Assembly (NCBI GenBank): GCA_010692635.1
Contig: JAAHGL010000006.1
Span: forward strand, 1-64,000
Source of the DNA: Symploca sp. SIO2C1
GTDB taxonomy: Bacteria; Cyanobacteriota; Cyanobacteriia; Cyanobacteriales; Coleofasciculaceae
Reading direction: 5' to 3'
Length of the DNA: 64,000 bases
In this document: positions 8,699 to 54,424 of the stretch, piece by piece
Numbering within the stretch: the stretch's first letter is position 1
Layout of the letters: every line of letters starts with the position of its first letter
Notes under the pieces: model-generated
Database searches by the model: none
The model's input: only the letters and a program-made list of their open reading frames with translations
What the model was told of the DNA's origin: nothing
Made by a program: the position numbers and the translations under genes

Positions 8699-10075
8699 AT
8701 GAACTTGACACCAGGCACTACCATCAATAAAGGCAAATATATCCTCGACACCAAACTAGGCAATGGGGTCTTTAGTCTTACCTACCAGGCAACCAGTCAG
8801 TCTAATCAAACAGTTGTCCTCAAAACCCTGCCTGAAACTTTGTGTCAGCATCCAGATTTTGACAAATTCAGGCAGCAATTTCTCAAGTTTGTTCTGACAT
8901 TGAAGCGCTGTCAGCATCCCCATCTAGTTTCTTTACTCGACTATTTTGAAGAAGCTGGACGCCCTTACCTAGTGATGGAATATATTCCAGGGCAGACTCT
9001 AGCCCAAATTATTCAAACTCAGGTCTTATCAGAAAGGAAAGTCTTTAAGTATATTTATCAAGTTGGTGATGCTCTGAATACCTTACATCAGTTTGGCTTA
9101 CTACACCGGGATATCAAACCCCAAAACATCATTCTGCGTCAAGATAGTGACTGCGTCGTATTGTGTGAGTTGGGGATTACCTGTGAGTTGACACCAGGAG
9201 CAATGCAAACTCATGCCAGTCTTCTCTCATCTGGATATGTGCCTCCAGAACAGTATTCTCCAGAGTATAAGCGTACCAAAGCAACAGATATCTATGCCCT
9301 AGCAGCAACTTGCTACTGCTTGTTGACAGGAGCTCCTCCGTTACCAGTACCAGTAAGGAAAGTGCTGCAAGCAGGGGAGAGTGATGATCTTTTCTCCTTA
9401 AACTCTCAACAATCACCACCTAAACTCACTACAAGAGCTATTCAAGCAATTAGGTGTGCTTTGGAACTAGCACCCGAAAAACGACCCCAAACTGTAGAAG
9501 CTTGGTTTGCCTCGATTCCGCTACCGAAGAGATTAAGGAGACAGGGAGACACGGAAATAGCCAAACAAGAAGACACCCCACTACTAAAGTCAGGGTATCA
9601 TAACAAAAATAGATTGCTTTTCTCCCCTTCTACCCAGAATACAGATGAACGAAGAAACGGTTGGGGAAAAGAGTCAGTAGACACGGAGATGCGAGACGCA
9701 CCAGACACGGAGAATGGAAATGCCACCCAAAATTTCGCTTACCCCCAGAATACTTCCGCACGGGTGAGTGAAAAAAGGTGTGGTAGAAACGATAAACAGA
9801 TCCACGGACGCCGGGATGCCGGGAAGCGGAGAATTGAAATTCCACGCACCCTAAAAAAAACTAAAGCACTCAAACCTCTCCCGTTTAAGCTATCCCTGAA
9901 AAAATTGCCCTTAAAAGCACTACTCATGACTGGTGCGATCGCGGCATCAGCAGGGATAGGATTTGGCTTTGCACTACGGTTTAATAGCCCTAATACACCA
10001 GGTTCGACAATTTTGCATACAGAGCAATCCTTCCCCCCTCGCAGTGATTGGCCTGTATCAGAACCATCACTGTGA
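8699..10075 (+). CDS. Ser/Thr protein kinase with altered DFG motif
   Basis: 458 residues. A protein kinase domain covers about residues 14-275: glycine loop LGNGVF, lysine in VVLKTL, catalytic loop HRDIKPQN, and the APE-like VPPEQY followed by TDIYALAATCYCLL. The DFG aspartate is replaced: the sequence reads VVLCELGIT where relatives have VLIDFGIA. A low-complexity basic linker (about 280-400) follows, then one membrane segment (ALLMTGAIAASAGIGFGFAL) and a short tail. The linker DNA contains pieces resembling IS ends. Membrane-anchored signalling is inferred. The altered motif could reduce Mg binding or mark a pseudokinase. Confidence 0.85.
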   Translation: MNLTPGTTINKGKYILDTKLGNGVFSLTYQATSQSNQTVVLKTLPETLCQHPDFDKFRQQFLKFVLTLKRCQHPHLVSLLDYFEEAGRPYLVMEYIPGQTLAQIIQTQVLSERKVFKYIYQVGDALNTLHQFGLLHRDIKPQNIILRQDSDCVVLCELGITCELTPGAMQTHASLLSSGYVPPEQYSPEYKRTKATDIYALAATCYCLLTGAPPLPVPVRKVLQAGESDDLFSLNSQQSPPKLTTRAIQAIRCALELAPEKRPQTVEAWFASIPLPKRLRRQGDTEIAKQEDTPLLKSGYHNKNRLLFSPSTQNTDERRNGWGKESVDTEMRDAPDTENGNATQNFAYPQNTSARVSEKRCGRNDKQIHGRRDAGKRRIEIPRTLKKTKALKPLPFKLSLKKLPLKALLMTGAIAASAGIGFGFALRFNSPNTPGSTILHTEQSFPPRSDWPVSEPSL

Positions 10076-10766: not shown

Positions 10767-12539
10767 TTGGTAACCCGAGTGTCTGCTCTTTCTAAAAACT
10801 CTGTCAATCCCAACCTATACAGGGAAAACTTGGTATCAATGCCACTTAACCGAGGTAAAGTCCACAAGGATAAAACTTACAGGTGGAACAGGGAAAATTA
10901 CTCCCGTAATCGCCGCTTTATAGATATTTGGTCTTTCGTTTTAACCCTGTCAACAAAGTTATGGCTTGAAGGTAAATCCTGGAGCTATCGGGGTGGCATA
11001 ACTGATGCCAAGCGTTCAGAAAGACGGAAAAAACAGGCAGTCTGGATTCGAGATACATTTTTGGAATTAGGTCCAACCTTCATCAAAGTTGGTCAACTCT
11101 TCTCCACCCGTGCTGACTTATTTCCTAGTGAGTATGTTGATGAACTTGCCAAATTACAAGATCGAGTACCTGCCTTTAGTTACGAGCAAGCTGCAACAAT
11201 TATCAAGCAAGATGTAGGTAAGCCAGTAGCCAAACTCTTTCGCAGTTTTGACCCGATTCCCCTTGCCGCTGCTAGTCTAGGACAAGTTCATAAAGCTCAA
11301 TTACCTAGTGGAGAAGAGGTAGTTGTCAAAGTACAAAGACCGGGATTAGTTCAGCTGTTTCAGATTGATTTAGCAATCCTTAAAGGCATTGCCCGTTACT
11401 TTCAAAACCATCCTGATTGGGGCAAAGGTCGAGACTGGATGGGAATCTATGAGGAATGTTGTCGCATTCTTTGGGAAGAGATTGATTATTTTAACGAAGG
11501 TCGTAATGCTGATAAGTTTCGTCGGAATTTCCGCAACTATGACTGGGTGAGAGTGCCACGAATCTACTGGCGGTATACTTCAGCACGGGTTCTAACCCTA
11601 GAATATGTTCCTGGTATTAAAATTAGTAACTACGAAGCTCTAGAAGCTGCTGGTCTGAATCGTAGCTTACTAGCAAATCTTGGGGCAAAGGCTTACCTAC
11701 ATCAGTTACTCAATGATGGTTTTTTCCATGCTGACCCCCATCCTGGCAACATTGCTGTTTCCCCTGAGAGTGCCCTGATCTTCTATGATTTCGGTATGAT
11801 GGGGCAGATTAAATCCAATGTGCGAGAGCAACTGATGGAAATGCTGTTTGGCATTGCCCAAAAAGATGGCGATCGAGTAGTTACTTCCCTAATTGAGTTG
11901 GGTGCTCTGGCACCAGTAGGGGATATGGGTCCAGTCAGGCGTTCAGTTCAGTATATGCTGGATTATTTTATGGATAAGCCTTTTGAGGAGCAATCCGTGA
12001 ATGAAATCAGCGAGGATCTCTACGAAATTGCCTACGGCCAACCTTTTCGTTTCCCTGCTACTTTCACCTTCGTCATGCGAGCTTTTTCTACCTTAGAAGG
12101 TGTGGGTAAGGGATTAGATCCAGAATTTAACTTTATGGAGGTTGCACAACCTTTTGCATTACAAGTTATGAGCAACAGCAATACTCCCGACAATCGTGAC
12201 AACCTGATCAATGAACTAGGACGCCAAGCAGTACAAGTTAGCTCTACTGCTTTGAGTTTGCCTCGCAGAATTGAAGATACAATTGATAAGTTAGAGCGAG
12301 GAGACCTGCGCGTTCGAGTGCGGTCTATCGAATCAGACCGAATCCTACGACGCATGAGCAGTTTGCAGTTGGGAACTAACTACACTTTACTGCTGAGTGC
12401 GTTCATTTTGTCAGCTACTATCCTATTAGTTAATGGTCAAGTAGTTCTGGCAGTAGTTGTTGCTTTGATGGCAGCAGCTGCAGGATTTGCCTTGATTCGG
12501 TTAGTTAGACGACTTGACCGATTTGATCGAATGCTCTAA
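10767..12539 (+). CDS. ABC1/UbiB/AarF-family atypical kinase
   Basis: 590 residues. Family hallmarks are in order: PTFIKVGQLFSTR (the KxGQ motif), PLAAASLGQVHKA (alanine-rich loop), VVKVQRP (lysine), FFHADPHPGNI (catalytic loop) and YDFGMMGQ (metal-binding DFG). Two hydrophobic helices close the protein at about residues 535-585. Members regulate quinone or prenyl-lipid metabolism in thylakoids and plastoglobules; the exact substrate cannot be told. The start is uncertain: TTG at 10767, GTG at 10779 and the ATG at codon 25 are all possible. The PP2C phosphatase 60 bp downstream on the same strand may be co-transcribed. Confidence 0.88.
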   Translation: MVTRVSALSKNSVNPNLYRENLVSMPLNRGKVHKDKTYRWNRENYSRNRRFIDIWSFVLTLSTKLWLEGKSWSYRGGITDAKRSERRKKQAVWIRDTFLELGPTFIKVGQLFSTRADLFPSEYVDELAKLQDRVPAFSYEQAATIIKQDVGKPVAKLFRSFDPIPLAAASLGQVHKAQLPSGEEVVVKVQRPGLVQLFQIDLAILKGIARYFQNHPDWGKGRDWMGIYEECCRILWEEIDYFNEGRNADKFRRNFRNYDWVRVPRIYWRYTSARVLTLEYVPGIKISNYEALEAAGLNRSLLANLGAKAYLHQLLNDGFFHADPHPGNIAVSPESALIFYDFGMMGQIKSNVREQLMEMLFGIAQKDGDRVVTSLIELGALAPVGDMGPVRRSVQYMLDYFMDKPFEEQSVNEISEDLYEIAYGQPFRFPATFTFVMRAFSTLEGVGKGLDPEFNFMEVAQPFALQVMSNSNTPDNRDNLINELGRQAVQVSSTALSLPRRIEDTIDKLERGDLRVRVRSIESDRILRRMSSLQLGTNYTLLLSAFILSATILLVNGQVVLAVVVALMAAAAGFALIRLVRRLDRFDRML

Positions 12540-12602
12540 CTAACGTAAAGTTTTTGATGTCAGCAAACAACTAGCGCACCAGAGCGCTGCCATGATAAAC
12601 GT

Positions 12603-13340
12603 ATGAAAGGTCGCTTCGCTGGTCTTACAGATCCAGGCTTACTGCGTACTGTAAACCAGGACAATTACTACATTGACCCGGATGGTCGCTTTTTTATTGT
12701 CGCCGACGGGATGGGAGGTCATGCTGGTGGACAGGAGGCTAGTCAACTGGCAACCAAGGCTATTCAGACTCATTTGGATGAGTTCTGGAAGTCGCCAACT
12801 TCTTCTTCTGAGTTACTAGAGCAAGCTATCGATAAAGCTAATGAGGCGATTATTGAAGATCAACAAGATCACCCAGAACGGGCAGATATGGGCACTACTG
12901 CCGTTGTCGTGCTCTTCCGCCAACAGCATTGTTGGTTAGGTCATGTGGGAGATTCTCGTATCTATCGCCTGAGAAATTCTGAGCTAAAGCAGATTACAGA
13001 AGATCACACTTGGGTAGCCAAGGCAATGAAAGCGGGTGACATTACTCCAGAACAGGCTCGGAGTCATCCCTGGCGTCATGTGTTATCTCAGTGTCTGGGA
13101 CGCAAGGACTTACATCAAGTCGATGTTCAATCAATAGATGTAGAATCTGGAGACCGCCTGCTTCTGTGTAGTGATGGTCTTACTGAAGAACTCTCCGATA
13201 CTTTAATTGCTGACTATCTCCAACCCGATTTAGATGAGAAAGAAGCTGCGGCTAAGCTCGTTGAAGCGGCTAAGGAGAATGGAGGTAGAGATAACATCAC
13301 CGTAGTGATTGCTGAGATTGAGCAAATGAGTAACCATTGA
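12603..13340 (+). CDS. PP2C-type protein phosphatase
   Basis: 245 residues, a full single-domain bacterial PP2C. Metal-binding and core motifs are present: [48 protein letters not shown] and GGRDNITVV. It removes phosphate from Ser/Thr residues using two or more Mn/Mg ions. It follows the UbiB-family kinase gene, and a Ser/Thr kinase lies 2.5 kb upstream, so a phospho-signalling neighbourhood is plausible but not proven. ATG at 12603 is close after AACGT with no strong Shine-Dalgarno. Confidence 0.92.
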
Positions 13341-13519
13341 TACTCCCCACGAATAACTTTGTGAACGAACGTTCAAAGAATTCGGGGGATTCTTAAGAGA
13401 TAAAAATCCTTAAAGGGTTAGCCAAAAACCCTCTACTCACTCACCCAAAAGCTTTAAGCTTACCTCTCAACTGCCAAAAAGGTATCTGAGCAAAGTTTTG
13501 ATTGTTGGTGCATCCGATA

Positions 13520-14380
13520 TTAATTTCTTGTCCCAGATTCAACAAAAGCTTGACTTAGAGCATCAACTACTCCGAGTTGTTTAGCCCACTTCATTAGATA
13601 ACCCCTGTCCAATTTTTCACCCTGAACTTTGAGGATACCTAAGACATCACGCCATTGTTTATCGGAGCCTGAATATTGCCTCCACCGTAGCTTATTCAAA
13701 ATGATATCTTCAGGAGAGGCAAAATAGAGTAGAGTACCTCCAAACTCAATCAACCGCCGTCGCTCGAATTTTAGTCGGTCAAATTCGTCTGTTCCGGCTA
13801 CTATCAAGTCTGCACGGCTAATAGTCTCCATATGAGTAATTTGCAGGTTTCTCATCCGACCAGATTTCAAGTCTTCAACACCAGGGACATAGAATTCATG
13901 GCTCGTGAGTACGCCACTAAGATGCTCGATATCTAGGGGAGAAATCTTGATTACCAAATCTAAATCTTGTGTTGTGCGGGGTTCACCGTAAGAGATTGCA
14001 GCGACTCCACCAGTAATGTAATAAGAAATTCCCAATTCTTCAAAAATTGGGTGAAGTTTAACTGCAAGTGAAACTGAGTCCTGAATCCACATCTGGGGGT
14101 CACTGGTTGGAATATAATCAGAGGGGCAATACTCTTGTAACCATGCAAAAGCAATCTTTTTAGCAAACTGCTGAGGGGAAAGTTCTCCAAAGTTTTGCCT
14201 GAGAGAAGATAAAGAGAGCTTCCGAGCGCTGCGGGTTAAGGAAGCTGCCATTTTTAACCGCTCAGTTGGTGTTCGCTGTCTGAGTAGGTAGAACGTCAAC
14301 AAATCTGTTTCTACAGTGGTGTCTTCTGCTTGCGGACGGTAACCGGGCTTGGTAGCGAATTTTGGTAGATATTGAATCAT
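13520..14380 (-). CDS. Nucleotidyltransferase-fold protein (AbiEii/MNT-like)
   Basis: 286 residues. The motif YYITGGVAAISYGEPRTTQDLDLVI at about residues 130-155 carries the GG and DLD elements of polymerase-beta-like nucleotidyltransferases. A later acidic residue in SRADLIVAGTDEFDRLKFERR and the helical C-terminus (PEDIILNKLRWRQYSGSDKQWRDV) fit the AbiEii/DUF6036-like group. Such proteins can be toxins of type IV systems or tRNA modifiers. The N-terminal 90 residues look like an additional helical domain. No cognate AbiEi-like antitoxin gene is adjacent, so its role is open. Confidence 0.65.
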   Translation of the reverse strand: MIQYLPKFATKPGYRPQAEDTTVETDLLTFYLLRQRTPTERLKMAASLTRSARKLSLSSLRQNFGELSPQQFAKKIAFAWLQEYCPSDYIPTSDPQMWIQDSVSLAVKLHPIFEELGISYYITGGVAAISYGEPRTTQDLDLVIKISPLDIEHLSGVLTSHEFYVPGVEDLKSGRMRNLQITHMETISRADLIVAGTDEFDRLKFERRRLIEFGGTLLYFASPEDIILNKLRWRQYSGSDKQWRDVLGILKVQGEKLDRGYLMKWAKQLGVVDALSQAFVESGTRN

Positions 14381-14404
14381 ATCTCCCCTTTTCGATAATT
14401 CAGC

Positions 14405-14674
14405 TCAGCAATTAGAAACTTCAAACGCCCATTCCTGATTACCAATTCTGATGACATTTCCGGGAGTGAGCCAAAAGGGTTGATGGGGAACAAGTTTCTG
14501 TCCATTGACAAAAGTACCATTAGAACTGCCTATATCGATTAGTTGGTAACGGATTGTACCCTGAGGATCAGGCTGCTGAAGAATTTGAGCGTGATAGCGT
14601 GAACATAAAGTATCTTCAATCACAAGACTACAGCTCGGTTCCCTACCAATAGTGAAAGGTGTTGCTGTTGACAC
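14405..14674 (-). pseudogene. FHA-domain fragment beside IS605 right end
   Basis: 89 codons encode a nearly complete FHA domain: PFTIGREPSCSLVI, then CSRYHAQI, then LIDIGSSNGTFVNGQKL and a final IRIGNQEWAFEV. FHA domains bind phosphothreonine. The frame opens with a GTG lying in the terminal bases of the IS605-type element, so the original start is lost. An SPFH-like N-terminal fragment on the same strand lies on the other side of the element (16427-16615). Both probably come from one interrupted gene. Confidence 0.7.
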
Positions 14675-14682
14675 TCCCCGGC

Positions 14683-15888
14683 CTAAAGGCGCGGGGATTC
14701 TAAGTTCTTCGTAGCCACTTGCTCTAGCAGGTTTCCACCAACTAGTGTAGAGGTAGCTACTCCCTTAGCGTTACTTCGGGGATGCCCTCCCCTAGATCTT
14801 GCTTTTTGCAAAATGTTAATTGCTGCGTTGGTATCTCGGTGGAGAATACAGCCACACTGACAGACATGAGTACGAGTAGACAAAGACTTCTTGACGACCC
14901 GTTTACACTGACTACACTCAGTAGAGGTGTACTGTGGTGGTACAGGAACAGCTAGTTTTCCCAACTTGCTAGCGAAATATTCAATCCACTGTCTGAACTG
15001 ATACCAACTAGCATCACTAATAGACTTAGCTAGACAGTGGTTCTTGAGCATATTACTAACTTTTAAGTCTTCATAGGCTACTAAGTCGTTAGACTTGCAT
15101 ACGTTACGCGCCACTCTCTTGGCGTGTTCATTCCGTTGCCTACTTACTCTTAAGTGTTTAAGAGAATATCTAGCTCTTGCTTTACAGCGTCCTGCTGAAC
15201 CTTTTTGCTTCTTATAGATGCGACGTTGAGCCTGTTTGATACCAGATTCAGCTTTCCTGAGAAATCTGGGGTTGGGCTCTTGATAACCATTTGAATCGGT
15301 ATAAAACGACTCTATACCGACATCTAACCCAATCTCATTATTAGTTGCTGACTGAATATCAGAGGACACAACATCAACAGCAAACTGACAGTAATATCCA
15401 TCAGCTCTACGTAGTAAACGTACTCGCTTGATGGATTGAATCGGATAGGTATGAATATCCCACTTGCCTAAAAGTTTCAGTTCACCAATATCTTTTTTAT
15501 CAGTAATCGTGATACGTCGCTTAGTTGGATGAAGTCTCCACCCTGAGGTTTTGTACTCAACTGAACGATTGTCTTTCTGAAACCTAGGATATCCTTTCTT
15601 TCCTGTTTTTTTAGACTTACAGTTGTCGTAAAACCGAGAAATAGCTGACCATGTCCTTTCAGCAGATGCTTGACAAGCCATTGAGTTGAGATCTTTGACA
15701 AATGTGAATTCATTGCGTAGTTCTGTTGAGTACTTGTTTAAGTCAAAACGCTTGAGATTGGCTTCTCTTGGCGCATCAATCCAATAGCGCAAACACTTGT
15801 TACGGATGAACTGAACCGTCCTGATTGCTTCATCAATAGCTCGATACTGAGCTTGTTTAGCTTTAATTTTGTACTCGATAACTAGCAT
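14683..15888 (-). CDS. tnpB: RNA-guided TnpB nuclease of IS605-type element
   Basis: 401 residues with a full RuvC-like nuclease: GLDVGIESF (first Asp), VAYEDLKVSNML (Glu) and HRDTNAAINIL (third Asp). A zinc ribbon lies between the last two: CSQCKRVVKK and CQCGC. The N-terminal helix-turn-helix-like segment starts MLVIEYKIKAKQAQYRAIDEAIR. TnpB proteins cut DNA next to a short motif using a guide RNA made from the transposon right end. The stop codon is only about 14 bp from the element end, so the guide scaffold must overlap the coding region. Catalytic residues are all present. Confidence 0.92.
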   Translation of the reverse strand: MLVIEYKIKAKQAQYRAIDEAIRTVQFIRNKCLRYWIDAPREANLKRFDLNKYSTELRNEFTFVKDLNSMACQASAERTWSAISRFYDNCKSKKTGKKGYPRFQKDNRSVEYKTSGWRLHPTKRRITITDKKDIGELKLLGKWDIHTYPIQSIKRVRLLRRADGYYCQFAVDVVSSDIQSATNNEIGLDVGIESFYTDSNGYQEPNPRFLRKAESGIKQAQRRIYKKQKGSAGRCKARARYSLKHLRVSRQRNEHAKRVARNVCKSNDLVAYEDLKVSNMLKNHCLAKSISDASWYQFRQWIEYFASKLGKLAVPVPPQYTSTECSQCKRVVKKSLSTRTHVCQCGCILHRDTNAAINILQKARSRGGHPRSNAKGVATSTLVGGNLLEQVATKNLESPRL

Positions 15889-15981
15889 TGATTCGACCCC
15901 TCAATGTGGTTGTTTACTTGCCACTATCAACATAGCACAATAGACTATAGTTGTCGATGGAATTCATTAAACAACCGGACA

Positions 15982-16392
15982 ATGACACTCAAGTCTATAA
16001 AATACAAGCATTATAACCATTCAGTGGGATTGGCCTGTGTTCATCTAGTATGGATTCCCAAAAGAAGGAAACCTGTGCTCATCGGGGATGTTGCAACGCG
16101 CTGTCGAGAAATATTTTATGAATTGGCTATTGAGAAAAAATGGGAAATTAAAGCTCTAGAAATCGCACCAGACCATATTCATCTATTTGTGTGTCATCAA
16201 CCTAACCATGCCATTAGTCAGGTCGTACAAGCCTTCAAAGGACGCTCATCGTGCTATCTTAGACGAGAATTCCCTCATCTGCTGAAGCTTCCGAGTTTAT
16301 GGACTCGCTCATACTTTCACACAACCGCAGGCAGTGTCAGTTCCAAAGTCATCATGGAGTACATTAATGACCCTAATCATAATACTCATTGA
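15982..16392 (+). CDS. tnpA: IS200/IS605 Y1 transposase TnpA
   Basis: About 136 residues from the ATG at 15982 (MTLKSIKYKHYNHS). The HUH motif is seen as DHIHLFV, and the catalytic tyrosine as VIMEYINDP near the C-terminus. The core VHLVWIPKRRKPVL is typical of the family. It moves single-stranded DNA by a peel-and-paste mechanism. It is transcribed away from tnpB, the arrangement of classical IS605. An upstream in-frame ATG at 15904 would add 26 untypical residues and was not chosen. Confidence 0.9.
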   Translation: MTLKSIKYKHYNHSVGLACVHLVWIPKRRKPVLIGDVATRCREIFYELAIEKKWEIKALEIAPDHIHLFVCHQPNHAISQVVQAFKGRSSCYLRREFPHLLKLPSLWTRSYFHTTAGSVSSKVIMEYINDPNHNTH

Positions 16393-16615
16393 TGAAGACG
16401 GCGCTTAAAAGCGCTACCTTGCCTTCATCAATTAATTGACATTGCTCTAGTAAGGGAATGGCAAAGCTAAAATGACATCCTGGGGTCAATTCCCGCAGTA
16501 GCCGACCATTTTTAACTAATAAACCTGCATAACCTGCTTCAATAAAGTCCATACTCCACCCAACCCAACGTTCCGGGGTTAACGTTTGGATGAGGGGGGA
16601 AGAGTTGCTAGACAT
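16373..16615 (-). pseudogene. SPFH/stomatin-like N-terminal fragment cut by IS605
   Basis: The frame from 16615 encodes about 63 native residues (WVGWSMDFIEAGYAGLLVKNGRL, then RELTPGCHFSFAIPLLEQCQL), then runs into the left end of the IS605-type element near 16426. The pattern GLLV.NGRL.RELTPG.HFSFA.P resembles the start of stomatin/SPFH proteins. The FHA fragment across the element is on the same strand. An SPFH-FHA fusion gene interrupted by the IS, with loss of the SPFH middle, explains both. This is inference; the fragment is clearly truncated. Confidence 0.5.
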
Positions 16616-16675
16616 TAGATTTTTTTAGGGGACTATATTAGCTTAACAGCGACAAGCTCTGAAGAAACGCTGAAA

Positions 16676-16738
16676 AGCTAATGGCTAATAGCTAATGGCT
16701 AATAGCTAATGGCTAATGGCTAATGGCTAATGGCTAAT
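16676..16738. repeat. Heptanucleotide tandem repeat array (GCTAATG/A)
   Basis: About nine copies of the 7-nt unit GCTAATG or GCTAATA, preceded by CTCTGAAGAAACGCTGAAAA, a module found next to other arrays in the window. The array runs to just before the aldehyde dehydrogenase gene and creates a spurious upstream start reading MANLS. Confidence 0.9.
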
Positions 16739-16768
16739 CTTTCAAGAAATAAGAAAATAGGGAGCAGG

Positions 16769-18190
16769 ATGTTCAATTCCTATAATGTTCGCAATCCTAG
16801 AACCGGACAAATTGATTATGTGATTACGCCGCTAACACCTGAGCAACTAGTTCAGCAGTGTACTAACTTGCGAGAAGCTCAAATCAATTGGCAGCAGTCT
16901 GGTTTAGCTAAGCGCATTGAGGCAATGCAGGCATGGAAGCAAACTCTATTATCTCAAAAAGAGGAAATTATCAAGGCTTTAACATCTGACACAGGGAGAT
17001 GGTTAGAGTCTGTCACCGAAGTTGACTCAGTTATCTCTAGTATCGATCGCTGGTGTCGATTGGCACCAGAATTGTTATCAGAAGCAGAAGCCAAATCTAC
17101 TGCTATTCCCTTTATCCACCTGCAAAATCAATCAGTTCCTTACCAACTAGTTGGCATCATCAGTCCCTGGAATTTTCCTCTGTTGCTTTCCTTAATTGAT
17201 ACCATACCAGCATTATTAGCAGGCTGTGCTGTTGTGGTGAAGCCGAGTGAAATCACCCCCCGCTTCATTCAAGTACTCAGAGAAACTATTGCTTGCGTTC
17301 CGCAATTGCGGGATATCCTAGCTTACATTGAAGGTGCAGGTGATACAGGTGCTGCCTTAATCAAATCTGTAGATTTGGTCTGCTTTACCGGGAGTGTTGC
17401 GACAGGGAGAAAAGTTGCGGAGGCAGCTGCTAGGCAATTTATTCCCGCTTTTTTGGAATTGGGAGGTAAAGACCCGGCGGTTGTCTTAGCATCAGCTGAC
17501 TTAGAATTAGCAACCTCGGCTATTTTATGGGGTTCTGTCGTCAATGTTGGTCAATCTTGCCTTTCCATTGAGCGCATTTATGTTGCTGAAGCAATTTTCG
17601 AGGATTTCATCAACAAACTGGTAGAAAAGGCAAAACGCCTTCGTTTAGCTTATCCTACTGTTGAAGAGGGACAAATTGGTCCCATCATTGCTCAAAGACA
17701 AGCAGAGATTATTGCACTACACCTCCAAGATGCAGAACAAAAAGGAGCAATTGTTCACTGTGGCGGTGCTATTGAAAAATTAGATGGAGGTTTATGGTGT
17801 CGTCCGACTGTTCTGACTCAAGTCAATCATGGGATGAAGGTGATGACAGAAGAAACCTTTGGTCCGATTATGCCGGTGATGGCTTTTGCCAGCAAGGAGC
17901 AGGCAATTAAGTTAGCAAATGATACCATCTATGGGCTAAGTGCTGCTGTATTTGCCGATTCAGAAGCTGAAGCGATCGCAGTGGCAAACTATCTTAATGC
18001 TGGTGCTATTAGTATCAACGATGCTGGGTTAACGGCACTAATCCACGAAGCTGAGAAAAATGCCTTCAAATTTTCTGGTATCGGAGGTTCACGTATGGGA
18101 GCGGCTGCGATGAAAAGGTTTATGCGCAAAAAAGCATTCTTGATAAAAAAAGAAACTATCCGTGATCCTTGGTGGTTTAATATGCAATAA
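16769..18190 (+). CDS. NAD(P)-dependent aldehyde dehydrogenase
   Basis: About 473 residues from ATG 16769, preceded by GGGAGCAGG as ribosome binding site. ALDH superfamily features: IISPWNFPLLL and VVVKPSE (cofactor binding), FTGSVATGRKV (Rossmann glycines), LELGGKDPAVV (catalytic Glu) and NVGQSCLSIERIYV (catalytic Cys). EETFGPIMPV precedes the C-terminal bridging region. It oxidises an aldehyde to the acid; the substrate is not evident. The C-terminal SGIGGSRMGAAAMKRFMRKKAF is typical of cyanobacterial members. The ATG at 16730 falls in the repeat array and is less likely. Confidence 0.9.
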   Translation: MFNSYNVRNPRTGQIDYVITPLTPEQLVQQCTNLREAQINWQQSGLAKRIEAMQAWKQTLLSQKEEIIKALTSDTGRWLESVTEVDSVISSIDRWCRLAPELLSEAEAKSTAIPFIHLQNQSVPYQLVGIISPWNFPLLLSLIDTIPALLAGCAVVVKPSEITPRFIQVLRETIACVPQLRDILAYIEGAGDTGAALIKSVDLVCFTGSVATGRKVAEAAARQFIPAFLELGGKDPAVVLASADLELATSAILWGSVVNVGQSCLSIERIYVAEAIFEDFINKLVEKAKRLRLAYPTVEEGQIGPIIAQRQAEIIALHLQDAEQKGAIVHCGGAIEKLDGGLWCRPTVLTQVNHGMKVMTEETFGPIMPVMAFASKEQAIKLANDTIYGLSAAVFADSEAEAIAVANYLNAGAISINDAGLTALIHEAEKNAFKFSGIGGSRMGAAAMKRFMRKKAFLIKKETIRDPWWFNMQ

Positions 18191-18227
18191 ATCAGTTATT
18201 CATTGATATACAGGCACAGAGTTTACT

Positions 18228-18674
18228 ATGTCAAACATTCGAGAGGAAATGCCGGTACTAGTGCGACATGAAGGTGACTGGAAAGGGACATATACAATAA
18301 TCGATAATGAAGGGCAGATCATCGACAAATATAACTCCCATATCACTTGTCAATTTCCCCAAGACGGATCTTCTCCCTATTTCCAAATAAATCGTTATGA
18401 GTGGCCTGATGGTAAGCGAGAAGAGTATCAATTTCCAGGAATGTATCAGGAGAAAAAGCTCTTATTTGACACAGAGCGCATCCTTGGTGAGGCTTGGGAA
18501 ACTGATGACACTACAGTTATACTGCGGTTTGGTTACAAAGGTGTGCCGAATAGTTATGTATATGAGTTAATTGTTCTAAGTCCGTGCAATAATCATCGGG
18601 CAAGAACCTGGCACTGGTTTAAGAATAATCAAATTTATCAACGGACTTTGATTAAAGAAGATCGCGTCAGTTGA
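18228..18674 (+). CDS. DUF3598-family protein
   Basis: 148 residues matching the DUF3598 pattern: HEGDWKGTYTIIDNEG near the start, ITCQFP, then YEWPDGKREEYQFPG, LLFDTERILGEAWE, and the close RTWHWFKNNQIYQRTLIKE. The family is largely cyanobacterial and predicted to fold as a calycin-like beta barrel; its role is not established. It lies 37 bp after the aldehyde dehydrogenase on the same strand and could share its transcript. Length fits a single-domain member. Confidence 0.85.
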   Translation: MSNIREEMPVLVRHEGDWKGTYTIIDNEGQIIDKYNSHITCQFPQDGSSPYFQINRYEWPDGKREEYQFPGMYQEKKLLFDTERILGEAWETDDTTVILRFGYKGVPNSYVYELIVLSPCNNHRARTWHWFKNNQIYQRTLIKEDRVS

Positions 18675-18715
18675 AAGTAATAAGTATATACCATTACCCA
18701 GTGAGAAACGCTATG

Positions 18716-18933
18716 TAGGGCTTGCTGAATAAGTAACAAGTAACAAGTAAGAAGGATTTAAGCCTTTATCCTCGTTTTGAGCACTTGTATTCCCCAAGGT
18801 TACCCAGGGATTTCCCATGAAAGTGCAAGAAAATTGTACCGATGGGCTCAAAACTCTTGTTCTTCCTGCCTCCTGCCTTCTAATGCTCATTACTTCAAAA
18901 CCCGAATCAATCGACTCGATGAGGCAAGCCCTA
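18716..18933. repeat. MITE with TIR TAGGGCTTGCTGAATAAG, copy 1
   Basis: The left end TAGGGCTTGCTGAATAAGT is mirrored by GGCAAGCCCTATA at the right. Inside are AAGTAAC heptamers and a segment CCAAGGTTACCCAGGGATT shared in inverse with the copy at 42228-42458. The right terminus reaches into the winged-helix regulator gene and supplies its stop codon. Other copies: 42098-42227, 42228-42458 and a partial one near 44090-44145. Confidence 0.8.
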
Positions 18934-19701
18934 TATATCTTCTGGTTTGGTAAGTAGTAAGTAATACTCGTTTTCTCGTTGAACCAATTGTTGCCTGTAA
19001 ATCATTGTCTCCGAAGCATCTTCAAAGAAGATGAATAAAAGCCTTTCTTTCAGAGAGTCACCACTTTGAGATTCATCAGCAATTACATTAAAATTAATAT
19101 ATTCTGGTCTATCAGGATTAGCTGCTTTAGCAATGCCATGCAATTCAAAACTTTTAGATTCTTTTTTGATAACTTTAGATAAAGCATCCTCAAGTCCTAT
19201 AAACTCAGGAAAGCCTTCTTGTAAAGGACTCTCTATCTTAGTCATTTTTGGATAATCAGAATAATTCAAGATACCTGGAGACATCCCTTTAATAATCAAT
19301 TCTGTATCAACAATTAGATACTCTATTGACTTAGCTTTTATGAAATCTTTCAGTACAGAAACTGGAGGTGAAATTGTTCCAGTCATCATCTTATTGTTAT
19401 TATTTAGGGGATTTAAGCGATAACCTAGTCCATGAACTGTTTCAATGATTATTTCAGTCGCATTGGCTTCCCTTAATGCTTTTCTAAGACCTTTAATATG
19501 TGCTCTTACACCTCCATGAGTTGGAATATTATCGTCATCCCAGAGACTATCGATAATAACATCATAGCTTAATACATGATTAGGATATTTTAAAAATAGT
19601 CTTAATAGCAGATACTCTTTAGGATGTAATCTAACAGGTCTCCCATCATAAGTAACGGCAAAAGATTTAGGGTCAACGGCAAGTTTATTGTAGACTAGCA
19701 T
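18931..19701 (-). CDS. Winged-helix transcription regulator with PAS-like domain
   Basis: 256 residues. Residues 1-100 form an OmpR/PhoB-type winged helix: DGRPVRLHPKEYLLLRLFLKYPN, then VRAHIKGLRKALRE and ETVHGLGYRLNP. There is no receiver domain. From about 118 a PAS-like sensor segment follows (IEYLIVDTELIIKGMSPGILNY and later FNVIADESQSG). It is probably a DNA-binding regulator responding to a ligand or partner. The stop codon TAG comes from the terminus of the adjacent MITE, so the native C-terminus may have been changed. Confidence 0.8.
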   Translation of the reverse strand: MLVYNKLAVDPKSFAVTYDGRPVRLHPKEYLLLRLFLKYPNHVLSYDVIIDSLWDDDNIPTHGGVRAHIKGLRKALREANATEIIIETVHGLGYRLNPLNNNNKMMTGTISPPVSVLKDFIKAKSIEYLIVDTELIIKGMSPGILNYSDYPKMTKIESPLQEGFPEFIGLEDALSKVIKKESKSFELHGIAKAANPDRPEYINFNVIADESQSGDSLKERLLFIFFEDASETMIYRQQLVQRENEYYLLLTKPEDI

Positions 19702-53896: not shown

Positions 53897-54194
53897 AGAT
53901 AGATGTATTGGGTGGTTAGGTTTTTTTACCTTGAAAATTCACTTTTAACAAAATTTTCTCTAGGCTAATCCAAATAGTTAAGTCGAGAGCAATTGTGTTT
54001 TTGCCGGTTACTATCCAATTACCAAAGCCCTATTTACTCAACATCAGCAGAAAAGAAGAGAACCTCACTGGCAACCACTACCATAACTTTTTGCTTAAAG
54101 AAAATTGAAATTTCTCCAACAGACTAAATTTTAAATTTAATTAGGAGAGTAGGTTTAATAGAATACAAGACTTGATAAGACCAATCAGGATACA

Positions 54195-54424
54195 TTGGTT
54201 ATTGGTTATTGGTCATTGGTCATTGGTCATTAGTCATTGGTTATTGGTCATTGGTCATTAGTCATTGGTCATTGGTCATTGGTCATTGGTCATTGGTCAT
54301 TGGTCATTGGTCATTGGTCATTGGTCATTGGTCATTGGTCATTGGTCATTGGTCATTGGTCATTGGTCATTGGTCATTAGTCATTGGTCATTAGTCATTG
54401 GTCATTGGTCATTGGTCATTGGTA
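54195..54424. repeat. Long heptanucleotide array (TTGGTCA, STRR type)
   Basis: About 32 tandem copies of the 7-nt unit TTGGTCA, with variants TTAGTCA and TTGGTTA. This unit matches the short tandemly repeated repetitive (STRR) class described in filamentous cyanobacteria. Because seven is not a multiple of three, all frames translate as repeating IGHWSLV-type peptides, which are not genes. Confidence 0.95.

What the first reader, a model, noticed from the sequence alone, without database searches (positions are those of the whole stretch)
14405..16615. IS605-type element splitting a likely SPFH-FHA fusion gene
A stomatin-like N-terminal fragment and an FHA C-terminal fragment lie on the same strand on either side of the IS. 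The target TTGAT is next to the left end. The SPFH middle is missing, so insertion was followed or accompanied by deletion. An SPFH-FHA fusion would link membrane-microdomain scaffolds to phosphothreonine recognition, and kinase and phosphatase genes lie upstream.
Basis: inference. Interest (0 to 1): 0.55.

Follow-up and report, generated by a model that had tools for sequence, protein, structure and literature searches.

The report
Jumping gene broke SPFH-FHA fusion gene
In this cyanobacterium a mobile element, followed by a deletion, has cut in two a gene that in its relatives makes one protein joining a scaffold-type (SPFH) domain to a phosphothreonine-reading (FHA) domain; the break is ordinary, but the little-studied fusion carries one absolutely conserved threonine that may be its switch.

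Summary
Of 19 relatives in the family, 16 carry it as one open frame of about 370 aa; the other 3 lack it; only the window genome is split. Both domains score above Pfam cut-offs in 28 of 28 named relatives scanned. Two details are wrong. (1) TTGAT is not the insertion target. Other copies show a left end starting TATTGACG..., directly after TTAT; the window copy has lost its first ~39 nt. Its intact right end (TCAA, 14668) abuts FHA-side DNA that in a congener follows TTTAT. So the element most likely entered at TTAT just before the FHA domain, and a later deletion took ~673 nt of gene plus ~39 nt of left end; TTGAT is the deletion junction. (2) The kinase and phosphatase genes lie beyond the gene's 3' end and recur in none of 29 relative loci. 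Beyond the brief: the linker is variable except for L-[AP]-[PA]-T-x-[LI], with Leu and Thr identical in 28 of 28, a candidate phospho-switch like GarA, OdhI and DgcB: inferred, untested. No transmembrane segment was seen, so a membrane role is unproven.

The parts
16430..16615 (-). 5' remnant of the SPFH-FHA gene: start codon and codons 1-62, up to the deletion junction
   Evidence: 88% DNA identity to G001 and 87% to G002; relatives continue into a full Band_7 domain
16427..16431 (-).
   Evidence: G002:C35 has ...GGGATGAAGG inside its left end and C135/C15 have ...GGCGGATGAAGG, so GAT belongs to the element
14668..16429 (-). IS200/IS605-type element, left end truncated (about 39 nt incl. most of the first hairpin missing), right end intact, ending ...GTGTCAA
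   Evidence: Full-length sister G002:C35 (L084:2463-4263, 1801 nt) aligns at 86% over 1759 nt; 16 of 37 other own-genome matches end at query 1833-1836, 12 of them exactly at 1833 = 14668
15979..16392 (+). tnpA, Y1 (HUH) transposase, complete frame
   Evidence: Y1_Tnp E 2.5e-34; NCBIfam transpos_IS200 135.5 bits, cut-off 55
14683..15888 (-). tnpB, RNA-guided endonuclease TnpB, 401 aa, complete frame
   Evidence: NCBIfam guided_TnpB 241.2 bits, cut-off 100; OrfB_IS605 and Cas12f1-like_TNB
14405..14667 (-). 3' remnant of the gene: FHA domain with GRE, SRYH and SSNGT intact; homology to relatives starts at 14667, directly after the right end
   Evidence: FHA E 1.5e-20; 89% DNA identity to G001 starting at 14667; motifs checked

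Best explanation
The locus is a recently broken gene. Ancestrally it made one ~370-residue protein: N-terminal SPFH/Band 7 domain, ~70-residue flexible linker, C-terminal FHA domain. An IS200/IS605 element (tnpA, tnpB) inserted after TTAT at the start of the FHA coding part. A later deletion removed everything from codon 63 through the linker together with the outer ~39 nt of the element's left end, joining codon 62 to the left-end remnant. The gene product is lost in this strain and the element is probably stranded. How the intact protein works (inferred): the SPFH domain assembles oligomers that display many FHA domains; the FHA domains bind phosphothreonine partners; a kinase phosphorylating the invariant linker threonine (T261, G001 numbering) makes the linker dock on the FHA cleft, in cis or on the neighbouring subunit, and switches partner binding. 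Shown: gene structure, element anatomy, deletion size, the conserved threonine. Inferred: order of events, stranding, oligomers, phosphorylation, switching. The confidence given is for the broken-gene history; for the switch mechanism alone I would give about 0.3.
For: Intact single frames in 16 of 19 family relatives, and 29 named loci that encode the protein, of which 28 are complete and one runs off its contig. Both domains matched in Pfam in 28 of 28 complete ones. AlphaFold model: SPFH part matches prohibitin and HflK (Z 14.6-14.8), FHA part matches EmbR, DgcB and GarA (Z 17-18). Right end: homology starts exactly after TCAA, and the G001 empty site reads ACTTTAT|CAGCAACACC. TTAT directly precedes the full left end in 5 of 7 copies examined, in a 6th with a divergent left end, and not in the 7th. 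Left end in the window starts 38-39 nt inside the full left end. Linker: 0 of 52 columns invariant in 205-256 and 0 of 8 in 265-272, but L258 and T261 invariant in 28 of 28. FHA cleft residues G294, R295, S309, R310, H312, S334-T338 invariant. Precedent: DgcB FHA binds its own phosphorylated N-terminal tail (PMC6733907, passages); GarA has regulatory threonines N-terminal to its FHA (PMC12321487, passages).
Against: No genome in hand shows the intermediate (element at TTAT with the SPFH part still present), so the order of events is inferred. dN/dS of the remnants (0.135 to G001) equals that of the intact pair G001-G002 (0.137), so the sequence shows no decay yet; the break may be very young, rare in the population, or an assembly error. 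A divergent SPFH-FHA protein (G242, 331 aa) lacks the threonine motif. Only ~10 residues separate T261 from the start of the FHA fold (271), shorter than in DgcB (T14 to 32). No transmembrane segment: highest 19-residue Kyte-Doolittle mean 1.55 over 28 proteins.
Confidence: 0.8

Rival explanations
1. The element inserted at TTGAT on the N-terminal side, and the DNA to its right, through the linker, was then deleted up to the FHA part.
For: TTGAT is next to the present left end; congener G002 has CAATTGATT at this place.
Against: The element's own left end is truncated here, and full copies start at TATTGACG after TTAT. The right end is complete and flush with DNA that follows TTTAT in G001; a random right-hand deletion would not stop exactly at the right end.
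Confidence: 0.08
2. Assembly error in a metagenome-derived genome: a repeat element wrongly bridges two pieces.
For: The genome is in 470 contigs and related elements occur many times; the assembly type is inferred from congeners being MAGs.
Against: Both flanks are the two ends of one gene, in the right order and strand, each ~88-89% identical to G001, and no second copy of the gene is in the genome. A chimera would have to join two ends of the same gene and also truncate the left end.
Confidence: 0.06
3. The two remnants are still made and useful: a short N-terminal peptide and a free FHA domain.
For: Both frames are open, FHA cleft residues are intact, and dN/dS is unchanged; the FHA frame has a GTG start inside the right end.
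Against: The N piece holds only the first part of the SPFH fold. G-rich bases abut the GTG with no normal spacing for ribosome binding (by inspection). Of 5 residue changes unique to the window, 2 hit columns invariant or nearly so in 28 relatives (R47C, N299C).
Confidence: 0.06

Closest known systems
IS200/IS605 family (IS605 group: tnpA + tnpB)
   Same: Y1 transposase, TnpB, hairpin right end ending TCAA, insertion next to a short fixed sequence without a visible target duplication
   Different: This copy lacks its outer left end; the target in this subfamily is TTAT. Targets of other family members are recalled, not tested here.
SPFH/Band 7 superfamily (prohibitin, HflK/C, stomatin)
   Same: Band_7 domain over residues 25-201; fold match to prohibitin and HflK
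   Different: No transmembrane segment seen and a C-terminal FHA domain; scores far below the HflK equivalog cut-off (40.9 against 159.4)
FHA phospho-switch proteins GarA / OdhI / DgcB
   Same: FHA domain preceded by a flexible stretch with a conserved threonine; FHA fold match Z 17-18
   Different: Fused to an SPFH domain; spacing ~10 residues; the motif is LAPTxL, not ETTS; phosphorylation unknown; below the OdhI cut-off

Membership tests
IS200/IS605 family | Y1 HUH transposase (TnpA) | tested here: met
   transpos_IS200 135.5 bits, cut-off 55
IS200/IS605 family | TnpB accessory nuclease (IS605 group) | tested here: met
   guided_TnpB 241.2 bits, cut-off 100
IS200/IS605 family | Hairpins near both ends in place of inverted repeats | tested here: inconclusive
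   Right-end hairpin present in the window but z only -1.74; full left end of the sister G002:C35 folds with z -3.01; the window copy has lost most of that first hairpin
IS200/IS605 family | Insertion 3' of a fixed short sequence | tested here: met
   TTAT before the full left end in 5 of 7 copies, a 6th with divergent left end, absent in the 7th; the G001 empty site reads TTTAT
SPFH/Band 7 superfamily (intact relatives) | SPFH domain | tested here: met
   28 of 28 proteins match Band_7; fold match
SPFH/Band 7 superfamily (intact relatives) | Membrane anchor near the N terminus | tested here: inconclusive
   No 19-residue window averages above 1.55 (Kyte-Doolittle) in 28 proteins; lipid or amphipathic attachment cannot be excluded
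SPFH/Band 7 superfamily (intact relatives) | Ring-like oligomers | not testable with these tools
   needs biochemistry or cryo-EM
FHA domain | FHA fold with phosphothreonine-cleft residues | tested here: met
   28 of 28 match FHA; GR, SRxH, SSNGT invariant
[quoted passage not shown]
   T261 in 28 of 28; absent from divergent G242
GarA/OdhI-type FHA switch | That threonine is phosphorylated and bound by the protein's own FHA | not testable with these tools
   needs phosphoproteomics and binding tests
GarA/OdhI orthologue | Score above the OdhI equivalog cut-off | tested here: not met
   26.8 and 39.7 bits against 200: works like, not a member

The most novel reading that the evidence does not exclude
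The SPFH-FHA protein is a previously undescribed class of phosphorylation-gated scaffold: an SPFH oligomer whose FHA domains are opened or closed together, through kinase action on one invariant linker threonine, possibly by docking on neighbouring subunits, in filamentous cyanobacteria; the window strain has lost it.
Probability: 0.3. Interest if true: 0.7.

Novelty: new variant of a known kind. Interest (0 to 1): 0.42.

Why it matters
The insertion itself is commonplace. The intact protein matters more: it ties a scaffold domain of the prohibitin/HflK type to phosphothreonine reading in one chain, in organisms with many Ser/Thr kinases of unknown purpose (recalled). The single invariant threonine in an otherwise variable linker makes a kinase-to-scaffold link directly testable. 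The window strain is a natural loss of function.

Tried and rejected
TTGAT as target: rejected after full left ends were found. A random deletion at the right end: rejected, the join is flush with the element end. Genomic linkage to kinase/phosphatase genes: rejected, no neighbour cluster is in more than 5 of 29 loci and none of those genes recurs; flanks were at most 6 kb and shorter on short contigs. Empty sites for the G002:C35 and C135 copies: only the left flanks aligned well in relatives, so these did not prove TTAT. Signs of decay: dN/dS shows none. Rfam: no match in 12000-19000 at E 0.1. The motif in other FHA proteins: a first script printed nothing; repaired, with 30 of 35 distinct FHA stretches carrying the motif and the 5 printed as other (4 other FHA proteins and G242) lacking it. 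Rows dropped: alignment A1 used 13 of the 16 intact family proteins (three missed by my script pattern); A2 used 28 of 29 loci (L115 runs off its contig). Print: searches showed no paper describing an SPFH-FHA fusion; only passages of three hits were read, and only 20 of 126 papers were listed.

Full report
What is in the window. On the - strand, ORF 16615..16373 (80 aa) and ORF 14674..14405 (89 aa) flank an element with tnpB (15888..14683, -) and tnpA (+, in ORF 15904..16392). The second ORF is an FHA domain (E 1.5e-20); the first scores below the Band_7 cut-off by itself (14.6 against 23.6 bits).

Are they one gene? Yes. In two congeners, G001 and G002, one frame holds both pieces, and 16 of 19 family relatives have a single open frame covering residues 1 to about 369; the remaining three (completeness 88, 89 and 90%) have no match, and the window genome has only the two pieces. 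In a phylum sample 11 of 386 genomes, the window's own included, match at E 1e-30, so the gene is restricted. One of the 11, G022, has it in two overlapping frames, and one, G242, is a divergent relative.

How the gene was broken. Against G001 the N part is homologous through codon 62 and the FHA part starts again 673 nt later (667 in G002). The element's right end is set by repeats of it in the same genome: 16 of 37 other matches end at query 1833-1836, 12 exactly at 1833, which is window 14668; homology to G001 begins at 14667. The left end is not complete. A sister element in G002 (L084:2463-4263) aligns over the whole window element at 86% but has more sequence to its left: TATTGACGCAGCCGAAAACC..., preceded by TTAT. 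The same start after TTAT is seen in C135, C15, G013:C3 and (with one changed base) G002:C224; G006 has a divergent version and G007 does not fit. The window copy starts 38-39 nt inside this end. The G001 sequence at the FHA side reads ACTTTAT|CAGCAACACC, so the site before the FHA domain carries the expected target. The simplest history is insertion at TTAT, then a deletion from codon 63 into the left end. TTGAT is made by the join: ATT from the gene and GAT from the element.

Age of the break. Remnants show dN/dS 0.135 to G001, against 0.137 between the intact G001 and G002. Thus nearly all their changes arose under constraint and the break is probably young. Of five residue changes unique to the window, two fall in invariant or nearly invariant columns (R47C, N299C), too few to conclude from.

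What the intact protein is. All 28 complete proteins match Band_7 and FHA. An AlphaFold2 model from the 28-row alignment (mean pLDDT 73.5, pTM 0.45) has confident SPFH and FHA parts and a low-confidence linker, 204-269. By structure the FHA part is closest to EmbR, DgcB, GarA and OdhI (Z 17-18), and the SPFH part to prohibitin and HflK (Z 14.6-14.8). Relative placement of the domains is not reliable. No transmembrane segment is evident (highest 19-residue mean 1.55), unlike many SPFH proteins (recalled).

The linker motif. In residues 205-256, 0 of 52 columns are invariant; in 265-272, 0 of 8; between them L258 and T261 are identical in 28 of 28, P260 in 27, A259 in 25, and 263 is L or I in all 28. 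The FHA fold starts at about 271. [quoted passage not shown] I therefore propose T261 as a phospho-switch; the short spacer suggests docking on a neighbour as well as in cis. This is inference. Against it, the divergent G242 protein has both domains without the motif, and that version was found in no other of 291 genomes at full length.

Neighbours. In 29 relative loci with up to 6 kb on each side, no neighbour cluster occurs in more than 5 loci, and the window's kinase (8699-10075), DUF6825, ABC1 (10767-12539) and PP2C (12603-13340) genes recur in none. Since the broken gene reads toward lower coordinates, they lie beyond its 3' end. The proposed link therefore has no support beyond proximity in this one genome.

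Verdict. The disruption is ordinary; the fusion with its invariant threonine is a new variant of known kinds and worth a test.

Noticed in passing
L124:1498-2490 (G242): A divergent 331-aa SPFH-FHA protein with a GTG start, ~42-48% identical to the others in the SPFH part, without the linker threonine motif; found once in 291 genomes.
   Followed up: partly
G022:C21:35167-36235 (L123, L126): An SPFH-FHA gene in two overlapping frames (residues 1-172 and 172-370): a frameshift, real or a sequencing error.
   Followed up: no
window 16677-16738: Heptamer array (GCTAATG, 8.9 copies) just upstream of the broken gene; many 7-bp arrays occur across the window, the largest at 54193-54423 with 33 copies.
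   Followed up: no
G000:C135:58509-59495 and G000:C15:21410-21999 (approximate): Two related elements in the same genome with full left ends; the C135 copy is internally deleted (987 nt) and the C15 copy runs off the contig.
   Followed up: partly
window 13520-14380 (-): A 286-aa ORF next to the FHA remnant without a Pfam match above cut-off.
   Followed up: no
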